From contig JAESUZ010001757.1 in assembly GCA_017311185.1 (NCBI GenBank), positions 1,054,001 to 1,118,000 of the forward strand: 64,000 bases of DNA, in the 5' to 3' direction. Under the pieces are notes generated by a model. It saw only the letters and a list, made by a program, of their open reading frames with translations, searched no databases and was not told the DNA's origin. This DNA comes from Proteles cristata cristata (taxonomy: Eukaryota; Chordata; Mammalia; Carnivora; Hyaenidae). The position numbers and the translations under genes are program-made. Of the stretch, positions 3,517 to 54,935 are shown piece by piece. Numbering within the stretch: position 1 is the stretch's first letter; each line of letters begins with the position of its first letter.

Positions 3517-5790
3517 TGTGTTTGAATAATCCAACGTCATTGCTGTTATGTGGTAATACAAATATATGTATACGTTTTCACCAAATTTGGAAATGAGACC
3601 TATCAATTTGGGCTATGATTCTCAGGGAAGACTTATGTGGGATGGTACAGAAATGAAACTAGTTTTTAGATAAGTTGAAAGTGATAAGAAGGGGGTTTGG
3701 GTGGGAGAAATTAAAGCTTTGGGTTAGAAATCTAGAAGCAAAGTTATATAGTTTGTGCAGAAACAGATTATAAAAAGCCTTGGGAGAAAAAAAATAATTA
3801 TCAAAAAGTGTTCCGCAGGCACTGGGGAGTCCCTGAAGTGTTTAGTAGGAGAGTATTCATGAAGAAGGAGGCTTCAAGAAGACAGATCCAGTAATGCTAC
3901 ATCAGGAGTCTGTGGGAACGGAGGAAGAGAATAGGAGCCCAGAATTGGTAAGGGAAGTTACCGAGCTATTAAAATAACCCTCAATTATAGGAAGATTCTT
4001 AAAGAAAATCAAGTATATCACTTTCAAGTACTTAGAATAATGTGATCTCATGATTAAAACATAACTGTCTCCTTCCGTCCTGACAAATCTGCTGAAGCAA
4101 AGCATTTAGATTGTGTGTTCCTACCATGAGGCTTTTATAGAAATGGATGGAGGTAATGCTCAAAAATAAATTGTTCTCAGATTAAGCTAACCACCTACTC
4201 CCCAAACAAAACTTCGTTTTTATCTGTAATTTGTGTTAACATTTCTTCACAGCTGGTACAAAATTAAACAAGACTAGTTTATGCTCACATAACTAAAAAT
4301 TCTCCATGACTATATTCTAGGTTAATAAGCACTTGCTACTCTCTCAGAAGTTTAAGGATACAAAACAACAACAATAACAACAACAAGTACAATAGTGAAA
4401 TTCACTCCCAGCCCCATTACTCCAACGCCAACTGGTTTCTCCTTTTCCTGTGTTTTTTATCCAGGCTTTGTTCATGTGCTGCTGTGTCTCTGTTTATGGT
4501 GGTTGAATTAAGTTTACCCATAATAACAGATGTAGGAAAACTATCTTTGTGCCTAGCATAAGCACAATTATCTTATTATTAAATGAGAAATGCTGGTTGG
4601 TAGATGACAGTATGAAGTAGATGGACATTGGTTTTCCCTCCTCTGATCTCTTCAATGTAAAGATCATATGGCAGTATTTCCTACGGAAAGCTTGGTTAAA
4701 ACTAGCGCAGTGCTGTGCCGCAGACCCTCTCCAACTAGCTGACCAAGTGACAAAGGACAGCAGCTACAGTCTGTTCTTTGTGCACATGCTTGTGTGTCTG
4801 CATTTCAATTGCCAAGTTAGACACTAATCTCTCCAGCGAGTTGAACATTAAGGAGGTTGCTGTCCCCGCATGTGGATTTAAAGACATTAAATCGTGGCCA
4901 TTTATTTCCACTATGGTTCTGAGATCTAGGCATCAGTATCGGAAGGGGATGTTTCAATATTTACTCCATTAATATTTGAGTATGGTTAGATTCAGAGTCT
5001 AGCTAGATGGACTGGAATTGTTTGCTTATCACTGATCAAATCATTATCCACGATGAACCAGATTTGCCTGCCTGGAGGCCATGTTCTAGGATGGACTGCA
5101 TTTATTCAAGGGTTTTGGGTTTGTTTATTTTAATAGCCCTTGTTGGCAAAAGCTGAAACTTGAAGGTTATCCAAATTCACTACTGGAGTGTAGCTAGAGC
5201 TCCAATTTGGTGAGGAGAGCATAAAGAGGTCTTGATCCCCAAGGACTTTCTGAATCTTGATTTACATAAATTTACATAGGTATCAGGAGTTTTGCTTATG
5301 AGTTACCGAAGCTAAAATGAAATTAAGTAATATTGTTTCCAGCAATTGAATACATGCTATAAAGGAAAATGAATTCCCCCAAAAAGAAAAATTTTTAAAT
5401 GTTTGGTATAATTCCATTACAGCAAAAGTCTAATACCATCGTATCTGCCAAGAAGTTCATTCCACTGCAAAAATGACTTTTGTGCTGTTTTAAAAAAACT
5501 AAAGTCTATTTTCATAGTTCCAACATTTATTCCATTAACTAATACTCCATGTGTTGGTTATTCCACAAAAATCCAACCAAAAATTCTGTGTGCAGAAAGA
5601 TATTGTTATTGTTGTTTTAATGGTCTCCACTGAGTATTAAAATGCTCACTATCTTGTTTCAGGTCTTAGAGGAAGGTCAGTATTTTATACAGATGCAGTT
5701 TTGCTAGAAATTAATTTATTCTTGTGCCTTGCTTTTCTAAAATTAAATGTATTCTCTGTCTGAAACTTGTTTCTCAATAATAATGGCAAT
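3513..5790. other. AT-rich unique sequence
   Basis: No confident repeat or gene. A short (AAC)n tract is at about 4366-4386. Small ORFs (67-68 codons) at 3902-4105 and 4621-4827 show no protein signature. Confidence 0.5.
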
Positions 5791-6897: not shown

Positions 6898-7111
6898 TTT
6901 TTTTTATATTTTTATTTTATTTCTGAGAGGGAGAGAGACAGCGTGAGCAGGGGAGGGTCAGAGAGAGAGGGAGACACAGACTCTGAAATAGGCTCCAGGC
7001 TCTGAGCTGGCAGTCAGCACAGAGCCCGACGCGGGGCTCGAACCCACGAACCGCGAGATCATGACCTAAGCGAAAGTCGGACGCTTAACCGACTAAGCCA
7101 CCCAGGCGCCC
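6898..7111 (-). mobile_element. Young CAN SINE (SINEC_Fc-like), complete
   Basis: Full-length reverse copy: poly-T, body ending in the CTAGAAATAAATAAA-type tail region, gacgcggggctcgaaccc B-box region and the gccacccaggcgccc head. The target-site duplication is atggcttcactaattt at 6882-6897 and 7113-7128. CpGs in the head are intact, indicating a fairly recent insertion. Confidence 0.95.
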
Positions 7112-8623: not shown

Positions 8624-8855
8624 ATTTATTTATTTTTTTTAAATATTTTATTTATTTCTAGGAGAGAGAGAGAGAGAGAGAGACAGCGTGAGCAGGGGAG
8701 GGTCAGAGAGAGAGGGAGTCACAGACTGAAACAGGCTCCAGGCTCCGAGCTGGCAGTCAGCACAGAGCCCGACGCGGGGCCCGAACCCACGAACCGCGAG
8801 ATCATGACCCAAGCGAAAGTCGGATGCTTAACCGACTAAGCCACCCGGGCGCCCC
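8624..8855 (-). mobile_element. Young CAN SINE (SINEC_Fc-like), complete
   Basis: Reverse full-length copy with intact CpG-rich head (gccacccgggcgcccc) and gacgcggggcccgaaccc. The flanking duplication is ttaatatgataatttta-like, at about 8608-8624 and 8856-8872. Confidence 0.95.
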
Positions 8856-9982: not shown

Positions 9983-10202
9983 TTTTTTTTTTTTTAAATG
10001 TTTTATTTATTTCTAGGAGAGAGAGAAACAGCGTGAGCAGGGGAGGGTCAGAGAGAGAGGGAGTCACAGATTGAAACAGGCTCCAGGCTCTGAGCCGGCA
10101 GTCAGCACAGAGCCCGACGCGGGGCTCGAACCCACGAACCGTGAGATCATGACCTAAGCGAAAGTCGGACACTTAACCGACTAAGCCACCCAGGTGCTCC
10201 AA
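9983..10202 (-). mobile_element. Young CAN SINE inserted in L1
   Basis: Reverse full-length copy with poly-T and a CpG-rich head. Flanked by cttgtcttttctttc at 9968-9982 and 10203-10217. The 89-codon minus ORF here is the SINE read through its tRNA-like head. Confidence 0.95.
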
Positions 10203-16929: not shown

Positions 16930-17709
16930 TCACAAGTCATTTCTGCAAATATTAAAAAGATATTTACACTTGTTTGTAGCAGCATTATTTTCTATAGTCA
17001 AGATATGAAAGCAGCCCATGTGCCTATCAATCAAAGAATGGATAAAGAGAATGTGGTACATATATGCAATGAAATATTATTCAGACATAAAGAAGAATGA
17101 AATCTTGCCATTTGCAACCAAATGGGTAGAGCTAGAGAGTATAATGTCATGTGAAGTAAGTCAGTCAGAGAAAGACAAATACCATGTGATTTCACTAATA
17201 TGTGGAATTTAAGAAGCAAACAAATAAAAGGAAAAAAGAGAAACAGAGAAAGAGATAAACCAAGAAAACAGACTCTTGACTGTAGAGAAAACATTAATGA
17301 TTTCAGAGGGGAGGGGAGGGGGGAATGTATGGAATAAGTGATTGGGATTAAAAAGTACACTTATCTCGGGGCGCCTGGGTGGCTTAGTAGGTTAAGCGTC
17401 CGACTTTCGCTTAGGTCATGATCTCGCGGTTCGTGGGTTCGAGCCCCGCGTCGGGCTCTGTGCTGACTGCCAGCTCGGAGCCTGGAGCCTGTGTCAGTCT
17501 GTGACTCCCTCTCTCTCTGACCCTCCCCTGTTCACGCTTTCTCTCTCTCTCTTAGATAAAATAAAAATATTTTAAAAAAAAGAAAAAAGTACACTTATCT
17601 TGATGAACACTGAGTAATGTATAGAATTGTTTAAAGATTATATCATACACCTGAAATTAATATACCACTGTACTAACTAATTGGAATTAAAATAAAAACT
17701 TTAAAAAAA
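16930..17709 (+). mobile_element. Carnivore LINE-1 3' end, plus strand
   Basis: Contains the ORF2 C-terminal region ('agcagcattattttctatag', 'cattgaatggataaag'-like, 'gtgatttcactaatatgtgg'), a G-rich 3' UTR tract (gaggggaggggaggggggaa near 17306) and a poly-A end at about 17709. Split by a young SINE at 17367-17583. Confidence 0.88.
17367..17583 (+). mobile_element. Young CAN SINE inserted in L1
   Basis: Forward full-length copy of the young type (ttcgcttaggtcatgatctc, gcgggttcgagccccgcgtc-like head). Perfect 17-bp duplication aaaaagtacacttatct at 17350-17366 and 17584-17600. Confidence 0.97.
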
Positions 17710-28928: not shown

Positions 28929-28940
28929 AACAACATAAGG

Positions 28941-29159
28941 GGCGCCTAGGTGGCTTAGTCAGTTAAGCGTCCGACTTTCGCTTAGGTCATGATCTCGTGG
29001 TTCGCGGGTTCGAGCCCCGCGTCGGGCTCTGTGCTGACTGCCAGCTCAGAGCCTGGAGCCTGTTTCAGAGTCTGTGACTCCCTCTCTCTCTGACCCTCCC
29101 TTGCTCACGCTGTCTCTCTCTCTGTCTCTCCTAGAAATAAATAAAACATTAAAGACAAC
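28941..29159 (+). mobile_element. Young CAN SINE, first of a three-SINE cluster
   Basis: Forward full-length copy of the young type. The 12-bp duplication aacaacataagg is at 28929-28940 and 29160-29171. CpGs are largely intact. Confidence 0.95.
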
Positions 29160-29171
29160 AACAACATAAGG

Positions 29172-29425
29172 AGGAGCACCTGGGTGGCTCAGATGGTTAA
29201 GCCTCTGACTTCCGCTCAGGTCATGATCTCTCATTCCCTATTCAATTGGATTGTTGCCAGGACCTATGCTTTTAGAGCCCCAATACTCTTACGCACGGGG
29301 CTCTCAGCTGTTCATGAGTTTAAGCCCCGCATCCGGCTCTGTGCTTTCAGATTCCGTCTCTCTCTCTTTCTGCTCCTCCCCTGCTAGTGCTCTGTCTCTC
29401 TCTGTCTCAAAAAATAAACATTAAA
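29172..29425 (+). mobile_element. CAN SINE carrying a foreign 69-bp insert
   Basis: Head gcacctgggtggctcagatg, then a normal body up to ggtcatgatctc at 29230. Foreign sequence follows to about 29310, after which the SINE resumes (gttcatgagtttaagccccg) and ends in an aaaaaataaacatt tail. It lies directly after the first SINE's target duplication. The insert is listed separately. Confidence 0.9.
29228..29296 (-). repeat. Inverted copy of 30154-30222 inside a SINE
   Basis: The 69 bases match the reverse complement of 30154-30222 with four substitutions and no gaps. Shared core: gccaggacctatgctttta. The breakpoint overlaps the SINE by a few bases (ctc). About 13 bases after the copied segment (from ggggctctcagct) come from neither the SINE consensus nor the donor. 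Confidence 0.92.
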
Positions 29426-29446
29426 AAAATTTTTAATGACACAAGA

Positions 29447-29632
29447 AATGCCTGGGTGGCTCAGTCAGTTCAGCATCCCACTTCAGCTCAGGTCATGATC
29501 TCACAGTTCATGAGTTCAAGCCCAGCATTGGACTCTGTTGTCAGCGTAGAGCCCACTTCAGATCTTCTGTCCCCCCTTCTCTCTCTCTGCACCTCCCCTG
29601 CTCATACTCTCTCTTACATTTATTTTTAAAAT
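29447..29632 (+). mobile_element. Older CAN SINE, third of the cluster
   Basis: Forward copy (gcctgggtggctcagtcagt head, 5' end slightly truncated) with a diverged duplication aatgacacaa / aatgacataa at its flanks. Confidence 0.9.
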
Positions 29633-30153
29633 GACATAAATCTCTCCTAAACAAACCCCAAACCCCCAAAACTCTCCTAAGTGTTTTTTTATCTAAATAA
29701 ATGTTGAGTTAGTGTAATTTGGAGTTAGATAGCAAGATAGGCGAAAAACATGGTAAGGAAGATCACTTGACAGGAAAGAGGAATGCAGCCTAAGGTCAGT
29801 TAGATAAGGAGAATCACAAAACCATCTGGAAAAGCTTTAAATTAGATATACAATACAATTAAGACCCAATAAAACCTTCAAAATTGACAAGCAAGTGTGA
29901 GTCACCTTGCTCTGCTGCTGGGCAGAAAAGACTGTGGGGACACAAATGGCCACTTACTAGATGCTATCACAGCAGTCACTGCTGGGTGACTCTATAAGCA
30001 CAAATAAACATCAGAAAATTTCCATCTTGGTGAATTCACCCAGAATTTTATAGTCAAGAAATCACCTAGGGAGAAAAACAAAATGTTGGTCTGCTATCAA
30101 CATAGTTGCAAATTTTATGTTATTTCAAAAAATGAAATTGTATCTCTGTTTAT
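29633..30153. other. Unique sequence
   Basis: No feature recognised. Confidence 0.45.
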
Positions 30154-30222
30154 GTGCGTAAGAGCATAGGGGCTCTAAAAGCATAGGTCCTGGCAACAAT
30201 CCAACTGATTAGGGAATGAGAG
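30154..30222 (+). repeat. Donor copy of the inverted templated insertion
   Basis: Lies in sequence that is not part of any repeat I recognise, with continuous flanks. It is therefore the likely source of the copy found in the SINE at 29228-29296. Confidence 0.85.
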
Positions 30223-39905: not shown

Positions 39906-40401
39906 AGTTAGGAGCTGATCAATAAATTGTGACATATCTCCATAACAGAATATCATGAATTCTCTAAAAGCCAGGGAAGATCTTTAAAATATACTTTTAA
40001 GTTAAAAAAAATATCTACATGGAAAATAGAAGTCACAGTGTGATTCTATTTGTAAACCTATACACATAGATTTATATGCTTACAGATGCATAAAACATTT
40101 CTAGAAGGACACATAAACTATTAGAGGAAGGAAAAAAGGATTTGTAAAGGGAAAGAGACACTTTAACTTTCAGTTTATATCTTTCTCTATGGTTTCAATT
40201 TTCTATGTTGTGTATAGATACATTGTATACTTACAGAAAGTGAGTGTTTTCAATAATTTCTGGATTTGAAATGTTGGTGAGTCTTTTGGAAGAAATCATT
40301 TTATGCCTTCTTACACTTCACTTTAAAATTATGAAGCTGTAGGGAACATTGTATTGTTTTGATCTTTATACTAGATGTTCTTATTAGTCTTGATTGTTCT
40401 T
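39906..40401 (+). repeat. Direct duplication, copy 1 (496 bp)
   Basis: Begins agttaggagctgatcaataa and ends cttgattgttctt. Nearly identical to 40472-40942, with a handful of substitutions plus a net 25-bp difference near the right end. It abuts the poly-T of a truncated SINE. Confidence 0.95.
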
Positions 40402-40471: not shown

Positions 40472-40942
40472 AGTTAGGAGCTGATCAATAAATTGTGACA
40501 TATCTCCATAACAGAATATCATGAATTCTCTAAAAGCCAGGGAAGATCTTTAAAATATACTTTTAAGTTAAAAAAAATATCTACATGGAAAATAGAAGCC
40601 ACAGTGTGATTCTATTTGTAAACCTATACACATAGATTTATATGCTTACAGATGCATAAAACATTTCTAGAAGGACACATAAACTATTAGAGGAAGGAAA
40701 AAAGGATTTGTAAATGGTAAGAGACACTTTAACTTTCAGTTTATATCTTTCTCTATGGTTTCAATTTTCTATGTTGTGTATAGATACATTGTATACTTAC
40801 AGAAAGTGAGTGTTTTCAATAATTTCTGGATTTGAAATGTTGGTGAGTCTTTTGGAAGAAGTCATTTTATGCCTTCTTACACTTCACTTTAAAATTATGA
40901 AGCCATTGTACCCTAGATGTTCTTATTATCTTGATTGTTCTT
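40472..40942 (+). repeat. Direct duplication, copy 2 (471 bp)
   Basis: Starts at the same base as copy 1 (agttaggagctgatc) and ends at the same gattgttctt, after which unrelated sequence (cttaatatttattgc) continues. Offset to copy 1 is 566 bp at the left end. Confidence 0.95.
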
Positions 40943-49002: not shown

Positions 49003-49222
49003 GGGCGCCTGGGTGGCTTAGTCGGTTAAGCATCCAACTTTTGCTTAGGTCATGATCTCGCAGTTCGTGGGTTCGAGCCCCGCATCGGGCTCTGTGCTGA
49101 CTGTCAGCTCAGAGCCTGGAGCCTATTTCGGAGTCTGTGTCTCCCTCTGTCTCTGACCCTCCCCTGCTCACGCTGTCTCTCTCTCTCTCTCTCTCCTAGA
49201 AATAAATAAAAATATTTAAAAA
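49003..49222 (+). mobile_element. Young CAN SINE, complete
   Basis: Forward full-length copy of the young type. The short duplication aatttcat lies at both ends. Confidence 0.95.
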
Positions 49223-54619: not shown

Positions 54620-54869
54620 TTAAAAAAAATTTTTTTTTAATGTTTTTATTTATTTGTGAGATAGAAAGAGATAGAGAGAGAGAGAGAGCAGGGGAGGGTC
54701 AGAGAGAGAGGGAGATACAGAGTCTGAAGCAGGCTCCAGGCTCTGAGCTAGCTCTCAGCACAGAGCCTGACAGGGGGCTCAAACCCATGAACTGTGAGAT
54801 CATGACTTGAGCCTGTGAGATCATGACTTGAGCCAAAGTTGGACGCTTAACCGACTGAGCCACCCAGAT
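54620..54869 (-). mobile_element. CAN SINE with internal 21-bp duplication
   Basis: Reverse copy. The 11-bp duplication gccagaaatac is at 54609-54619 and 54870-54880. The A-box region carries a perfect 21-bp tandem duplication (54793-54834). Confidence 0.94.
54793..54834 (-). repeat. 21-bp perfect tandem duplication inside SINE
   Basis: The unit gagatcatgacttgagcc, with three leading bases tgt, occurs twice without mismatch. Other SINEs in the window have it once. Confidence 0.95.
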
Positions 54870-54935
54870 GCCAGAAATACCTTTAAAAAAAATCTCCAAA
54901 TACTCATCTGGGTTTGGGAACCACGAGCCTAGTCC

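What the first reader, a model, noticed from the sequence alone, without database searches (positions are those of the whole stretch)
29228..30222. A 69-bp inverted copy of downstream sequence is spliced into a SINE
The SINE at 29172-29425 is interrupted after ggtcatgatctc by 69 bases that match the reverse complement of 30154-30222 with four substitutions and no gaps. About 13 bases of unknown origin follow, then the SINE resumes in register. The donor lies in non-repeat sequence about 0.9 kb away, so the SINE copy is the recipient. The structure fits a replication template switch or repair of a break by copying a nearby strand in inverted orientation. A few bases of shared sequence (ctc) at the left joint are consistent with this. 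It must postdate the SINE insertion.
Basis: partly seen in the sequence, partly recalled or inferred. Interest (0 to 1): 0.75.

Follow-up and report, generated by a model that had tools for sequence, protein, structure and literature searches.

The report
Short inverted copy inside a SINE
A 69-base piece of nearby DNA was copied backwards into an old repeat element, most likely when a DNA polymerase jumped templates: a clear but ordinary fossil of a known kind of mutation.

Summary
Bases 29228-29296 are the reverse complement of 30154-30222 at 65 of 69 positions without gaps; about 1e-23 such pairs are expected by chance in the window. In the 2.387-Gb genome holding the window the segment was found only at these two places (82-base search; 24-base core with up to 3 mismatches, reversed-pattern control 0), so it is not a dispersed repeat. 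The recipient is a CanSINE-like element, the middle of three in a row. Best reading: one mutation of the template-switch / templated-insertion kind, inverted, from 0.9 kb away. The right joint can be refined: the "13 bases of unknown origin" parse as an 8-base copy (GGGGCTCT) from the opposite strand of the same segment, overlapping a return to the SINE about 4 bases before it was left. The two copies differ by 6%, the SINE's non-CpG sites by 11% from its consensus, so the event looks younger than the SINE. Fork or break is not settled. New member of a known kind; modest interest. No relative's genome could be compared, and the 1-kb donor flank's genome-wide copy number stayed unanswered.

The parts
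28929..28939 (+). left target-site duplication of SINE1 (AACAACATAAG)
   Evidence: read from the sequence; identical to 29160-29170
28940..29159 (+). SINE1, youngest of three adjacent CanSINE-like copies
   Evidence: 4/159 non-CpG (6/187 in all) differences to the consensus of its nearest 25 copies; tRNA-like head 26 bits, below the Rfam gathering score of 29
29160..29170 (+). right target-site duplication of SINE1
29171..29230 (+). left part of the interrupted SINE (SINE2), up to GATCTC
   Evidence: 29176-29230 aligned to consensus 3-57; aligned with other copies
29228..29230 (.). CTC, 3-nt microhomology shared by SINE and donor at the left joint
29228..29296 (-). inverted copy of the donor, 69 nt
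   Evidence: 65/69 to the reverse complement of 30154-30222
29297..29304 (.). GGGGCTCT: reverse complement of 29274-29281, same-strand copy of 30169-30176; proposed second, switch-back tract
   Evidence: an 8-nt prefix match to the insert (either strand) in 0.26% of 5000 random 13-mers
29301..29306 (+). CTCTCA, direct repeat of 29228-29233
   Evidence: a share of 6 nt or more with the left joint in 3.0% of 20,000 random 13-mers
29302..29425 (+). right part of SINE2, resuming at TCTCA
   Evidence: aligned to consensus 54-101 and 121-146
29435..29639 (+). SINE3, the most diverged of the three, with flanking AATGACACAA / AATGACATAA
   Evidence: 20/149 non-CpG differences
30154..30222 (+). donor (template) segment; only other place of the 69 nt found
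   Evidence: genome-wide; no other match within 264 kb. Genome-wide copy number of its 1-kb flank not obtained

Best explanation
One germline mutation in an ancestor put an inverted 69-nt copy of nearby DNA into an old CanSINE by copying (templated insertion by template switching, the MMBIR/FoSTeS kind). Read left to right: a 3' end ending in ...GATCTC left the SINE, annealed by CTC to GAG at 30220-30222, and copied back to 30154 (the 69-nt copy is shown by sequence; the act of copying is inferred). It then switched to the opposite strand of the same segment and copied 8 nt, GGGGCTCT (inferred). It returned to the SINE through the shared TCT, about 4 nt upstream of where it had left, so TCTC is now present twice (inferred from alignment). 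Read right to left the same product is a fold-back: the right-hand 3' end copies sequence on its own side and is then joined to the left end through CTC. Sequence alone decides neither the direction nor whether a stalled or broken fork or a two-ended break began it. No present function is indicated: it breaks a SINE just upstream of where the B box lies (position recalled) and leaves a 69-nt inverted repeat with an 857-nt spacer.
For: Match and end points; chance about 1e-23. Two copies found in the genome. Recipient is an interrupted repeat: of 89 CanSINE linkers matched in 264 kb (a pattern that accepts linkers up to 16 nt), 81 have 5 nt. A search for SINEs with an internal gap, its thresholds loosened until this locus was found, gave 2 candidates: this one and a 504-nt gap that itself begins with SINE tail sequence (first 90 nt seen). 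3-nt microhomology at the left joint. The filler's first 8 nt match the inserted segment on the other strand (0.26% of 5000 random 13-mers); the SINE extension is reached by 8.7%; both together by 0.02%, that is 1 of 5000. No poly(A) and no long target-site duplication. Parallel: in yeast rad27 and RPA-related mutants (not in dna2), most complex templated insertions are two fragments of one locus in inverted orientation (PMC11724301, section 19).
Against: No orthologous locus without the insert could be seen, so the empty SINE is inferred from the family. The 8-nt tract is short: allowed anywhere in the 13 nt, an 8-nt match to the insert occurs in 1.1% of random 13-mers, to insert plus donor region in 9.6%, to all local elements in 23%. 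Microhomology at the second switch is poor, whereas the yeast study gives a median of 6 bp there. The four differences cluster in two pairs; whether some were made at the event is unknown. The recipient region does not fold unusually well.
Confidence: 0.88

Rival explanations
1. Two-ended break in the SINE repaired by end joining that captured a separately synthesised patch from the donor (class 2 templated sequence insertion); the 4-nt TCTC duplication would come from filling staggered ends, and GGGG(C) would be untemplated. This is a rival on route and overlaps the best explanation; its odds are not exclusive of it.
For: Short microhomology, possible filler and a short duplication fit end joining (PMC5110952 passages; PMC11724301 sections 15 and 19).
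Against: Class 2 templates are described as distant and possibly RNA-derived; here the template is 0.9 kb away in cis and inverted. The first 8 filler nt match the donor segment.
Confidence: 0.3
2. LINE-1-mediated insertion of a short RNA copy (class 1 templated sequence insertion).
For: A 6-nt direct repeat CTCTCA flanks the insert in the present sequence.
Against: No poly(A) tract at either end, no AATAAA in the segment, no TTTT/A at the target (sequence). All six bases of the left copy lie within the donor match.
Confidence: 0.02
3. Both 69-nt segments are copies of a dispersed repeat that happened to land nearby in opposite orientation.
For: Mammalian genomes hold many short repeat fragments (general knowledge).
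Against: Whole-genome search finds two places only; 24-nt core with up to 3 mismatches finds the same two, reversed control none. No repeat library was available.
Confidence: 0.01
4. Assembly artefact (inverted chimeric read or misjoined contig).
For: Reads were not available.
Against: Four substitutions in 69 nt do not fit an artefactual duplicate of one locus; microhomology and SINE continuity at base level; no N in the window.
Confidence: 0.03
5. Opposite direction: the segment was in the SINE first and was copied to 30154-30222.
For: Sequence identity is symmetric.
Against: No other SINE copy carries the segment, so the SINE would need a source that is no longer found.
Confidence: 0.02

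Closest known systems
Short-range template switch mutations, four-point model (PMC7954356: outline, section 4 part 1 of 2, section 8 and passages seen)
   Same: Inverted templated fragment, single inverted repeat as product, return to the original strand. With a 4-nt overlap it resembles their '4 before 1' insertions. 69 nt lies inside the range of their gold-standard set (median 12, maximum 128).
   Different: Template 0.9 kb away, while that survey's search region reached about 100 nt beyond the cluster and its 40-nt flanks; far longer than their median; possible extra switch.
MMBIR / FoSTeS (PMC2621351, passages seen) and MMBIR-linked templated insertions (PMC8421209, passages seen)
   Same: 2-5 bp microhomology, inverted duplications, several switches in one event.
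   Different: The model paper says most switches it discusses span tens to hundreds of kb; the templated-insertion tool searched templates within 100 bp. This event falls between.
Templated and inverted insertions at breaks in yeast (PMC11724301: outline with abstract, sections 15 and 19 seen)
   Same: Fold-back inverted copies, and double insertions from one locus in opposite orientations.
   Different: The local fold-backs there use a repeat within about 53 bp of the break; the microhomology between the two inverted fragments is longer (median 6 bp).
Templated sequence insertion polymorphisms (PMC5110952: part 1 of 4 and passages seen)
   Same: Class 2: templated patch, microhomology, no poly(A).
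   Different: Template local rather than distant; not shown to be polymorphic.
Puma CanSINE locus 174511 (PMC4084570, section 9 and passages seen)
   Same: A feliform CanSINE locus altered with a short reverse-oriented fragment (18 bp, similar to a CanSINE); calling it a parallel is my inference.
   Different: There the SINE and 68 adjacent nt were lost and replaced; the authors present it as SINE excision.

Membership tests
Template-switch / MMBIR-type templated insertion | Inserted tract copied from another place, donor kept | tested here: met
   Both copies present, 65/69, two places found in the genome
Template-switch / MMBIR-type templated insertion | Microhomology of 2-5 bp at joints | tested here: met
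   CTC at the left joint. The right joint depends on the parse (TCT if the 8-nt tract is accepted); not tested against shuffled joints
Template-switch / MMBIR-type templated insertion | More than one switch in one event | tested here: inconclusive
   8-nt opposite-strand tract: 0.26% of random prefixes, but 1.1-23% if any position and wider targets are allowed
Short-range template switch as catalogued (PMC7954356) | Template within about 100 nt of the realigned cluster region | tested here: not met
   857-nt spacer
Short-range template switch as catalogued (PMC7954356) | Ancestral state shown by an outgroup | not testable with these tools
   The genome has no relatives held
Class 2 templated sequence insertion | No TSD of 5 bp or more, no poly(A), end-joining marks | tested here: inconclusive
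   No poly(A); SINE-derived overlap 4 nt, but the literal flanking repeat is 6 nt
Class 2 templated sequence insertion | Template from a distant genomic region | tested here: not met
   Template 0.9 kb away
Class 1 templated sequence insertion (LINE-1) | Poly(A) after a cryptic signal, TTTT/A target | tested here: not met
   Absent from the sequence
CanSINE (recipient) | tRNA-derived head, CT-rich middle, A-rich tail, high copy number | tested here: met
   Weak tRNA match in SINE1 only (26 bits, below the gathering score); 5 ARAGORN tRNA calls in the window, all at SINE copies; 96 copies in 264 kb; 532,843 exact GGTCATGATCTC in the genome. The name CanSINE rests on PMC4084570 and recall, not on a repeat library

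The most novel reading that the evidence does not exclude
Inverted template switches over about 0.1-5 kb are a mutation class that scans limited to about 100 nt miss by design. This one was triggered by the retrotransposition of SINE1, whose 3' end lies about 60 bp from the recipient joint and whose divergence (4/159 non-CpG, 2.5%) is close to the per-copy divergence of the insert (3.0%).
Probability: 0.05. Interest if true: 0.5.

Novelty: new member of a known kind. Interest (0 to 1): 0.25.

Why it matters
An interrupted high-copy repeat shows which copy is donor and which is recipient without an outgroup, and the SINE's age sets an upper limit for the event. Its 0.9-kb reach lies between two published scans that look within about 100 nt and studies of much larger rearrangements. 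Interrupted SINEs could therefore be used to count such events genome-wide. The locus itself has no evident function.

Tried and rejected
Dispersed repeat: rejected. LINE-1 insertion: rejected for lack of poly(A) and target site. Hairpin-driven event: the folded recipient region is not unusually stable (z -1.54; 13 of 200 shuffles fold at least as well). Reading the filler as a CTCTCA direct repeat alone: 3.0% of 20,000 random 13-mers share 6 nt or more with the left joint; 2 of 89 SINE linkers are TCTCA, so this parse is possible but weaker. A first script for interrupted SINEs found 0 candidates because its thresholds also missed this locus; they were loosened until it was found (2 candidates), so that count is no unbiased rate. 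Survey of 264 kb (window plus 200 kb on one side) for local repeats: 25 pairs of 28 nt or more, 88% or more, within 5 kb; 6 rows low-copy (at most 6 matches at the commoner arm), 2 of them inverted (this one and a 358-bp pair). Paper searches: searches gave the papers used; a search for template switch, SINE insertion, carnivor-, inverted duplication and hyena (at least 3 of 5 terms) listed 4 papers and one on mid-range switches (5 of 6 terms) listed 6, none of them on such an event by title and abstract start. That scans miss this distance is said of the two papers named (PMC7954356, PMC8421209), not of all literature.

Full report
What is there. The window lies in a 1.38-Mb contig of a 2.387-Gb genome. 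Three CanSINE-like elements stand head to tail at about 28940-29159, 29171-29425 and 29446-29629. The first has a perfect 11-nt target-site duplication (28929-28939 and 29160-29170) and the third a 10-nt one with one difference (29435-29444 and 29630-29639). Tandem arrays of CanSINEs from repeated insertion at existing CanSINE loci are described for felids (PMC4084570, abstract passage). The middle element is interrupted after GATCTC by 69 nt that are the reverse complement of 30154-30222 at 65 of 69 positions. Identity ends sharply on both sides. Chance expectation over the window is about 1e-23.

Not a repeat family. An 82-nt search of the whole genome gave 2 candidates and 2 matches, the two arms. 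A scan for the 24-nt core with up to 3 mismatches gave one forward and one reverse place, the same two, with none for the reversed control. The SINE, by contrast, is one of a huge family: 532,843 exact copies of GGTCATGATCTC (267,756 + 265,087). So the SINE is the recipient. The copy number of the donor's 1-kb flank in the whole genome was asked for repeatedly and not answered; within 264 kb the donor segment matches only its partner.

The joints. Left: CTC (29228-29230) belongs to both SINE and donor. The first 8 are the reverse complement of 29274-29281 inside the insert, or equally a same-strand copy of 30169-30176 in the donor; an 8-nt prefix match to the insert, either strand, occurs in 0.26% of 5000 random window 13-mers and 0.1% of shuffles of the filler. 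From TCTCA (29302) on, the sequence aligns to the SINE consensus just before GTTC; 8.7% of random fillers, or 2.9% of shuffles, extend the SINE as well. Both together: 1 of 5000 random fillers (0.02%). On this parse the SINE resumes about 4 consensus positions before it was left, so TCTC is duplicated, and no base need be untemplated apart from later change in the linker (AGCT for ACA or ACG). Against it: allowed anywhere in the 13 nt, an 8-nt match is not rare (1.1% for the insert, 9.6% for insert plus donor region, 23% for all local elements), and the junction between the 69-nt and 8-nt tracts has little microhomology. The plain alternative is a loss of about 3 nt and a 13-nt filler.

Age. 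The two 69-nt copies differ at 4 sites (6.0% corrected). At 2.2e-9 substitutions per site and year (recalled value) this is 14 million years, with a Poisson range of 3.6-34; at 1.5e-9 it is 20, at 3e-9 it is 10. Against consensus sequences of their nearest 25 copies, which makes them look younger than a family consensus would, non-CpG divergence is 4/159 for SINE1, 15/135 for SINE2 and 20/149 for SINE3; over all sites 6/187, 25/154 and 32/171. The order suggested is SINE3, SINE2, then SINE1 and the insertion at about the same level. These are small counts; the coincidence with SINE1 is a lead only.

Mechanism. An inverted copy of a nearby strand, donor retained, 3-nt microhomology, return to the original element: this is what a template switch leaves. 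In the four-point model (PMC7954356; outline, section 4 part 1, section 8 and passages seen) read left to right it is 1-4-3-2, or a '4 before 1' variant if the 4-nt overlap is accepted; read right to left it is the 3-2-1-4 kind (or its variant), which could be intra-strand. Their gold-standard fragments have a median of 12 and a maximum of 128 nt, and templates were sought within about 100 nt of the realigned region. The MMBIR templated-insertion tool also looked within 100 bp (PMC8421209, passages). The MMBIR model paper says most switches it discusses span tens to hundreds of kb (PMC2621351, passages). Fold-back insertions at yeast breaks, and double insertions from one locus in opposite orientation in rad27 and RPA-related mutants (65-100% of complex insertions there, 6% in dna2-deficient cells), are described in PMC11724301 (sections 15 and 19). 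Fork-based switching and break repair with a captured patch cannot be told apart from one product.

Context. In 264 kb of the same contig, 25 local pairs passed (28 nt or more, 88% or more, within 5 kb) and 6 rows were low-copy. Two of those are inverted: this one, and a 358-bp pair 3 kb apart at 90% (L007:1604-1959 and 4960-5317). Three rows belong to one direct duplication in the window and one is a 46-nt direct pair with up to 6 matches. So such pairs are uncommon here but this is not the only one.

Verdict. It is a clean, well-oriented example of a known mutational process, with a refined right joint and a reach of 0.9 kb. No function is indicated.

Noticed in passing
window 39906-40337 and 40472-40903: A recent direct duplication: 432 nt at 99.1% without gaps, offset 566 nt, with a further 31-nt match at 40371/40913.
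   Followed up: partly
window 54792-54834: A perfect 21-bp tandem duplication (two copies) inside a CanSINE at 54622-54882, at the same GTCATGATCTC stretch where SINE2 is interrupted.
   Followed up: no
L007:1604-1959 and L007:4960-5317: An inverted pair of 358 bp at 90% identity, 3 kb apart, low-copy within 264 kb. Genome-wide copy number not checked; may be a further mid-range inverted duplication or a rare repeat.
   Followed up: partly
window 28929-29639: Three CanSINE-like elements in the same orientation, one after another, with similar flanking ACATAAG-like sequence; most diverged downstream, least diverged upstream.
   Followed up: partly
window 7022-7107, 8765-8850, 10110-10195, 17373-17458, 49007-49092: ARAGORN calls tRNA-Glu (four) and tRNA-Lys (one) in SINE heads; the places coincide with SINE copies, so they are probably not tRNA genes.
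   Followed up: no
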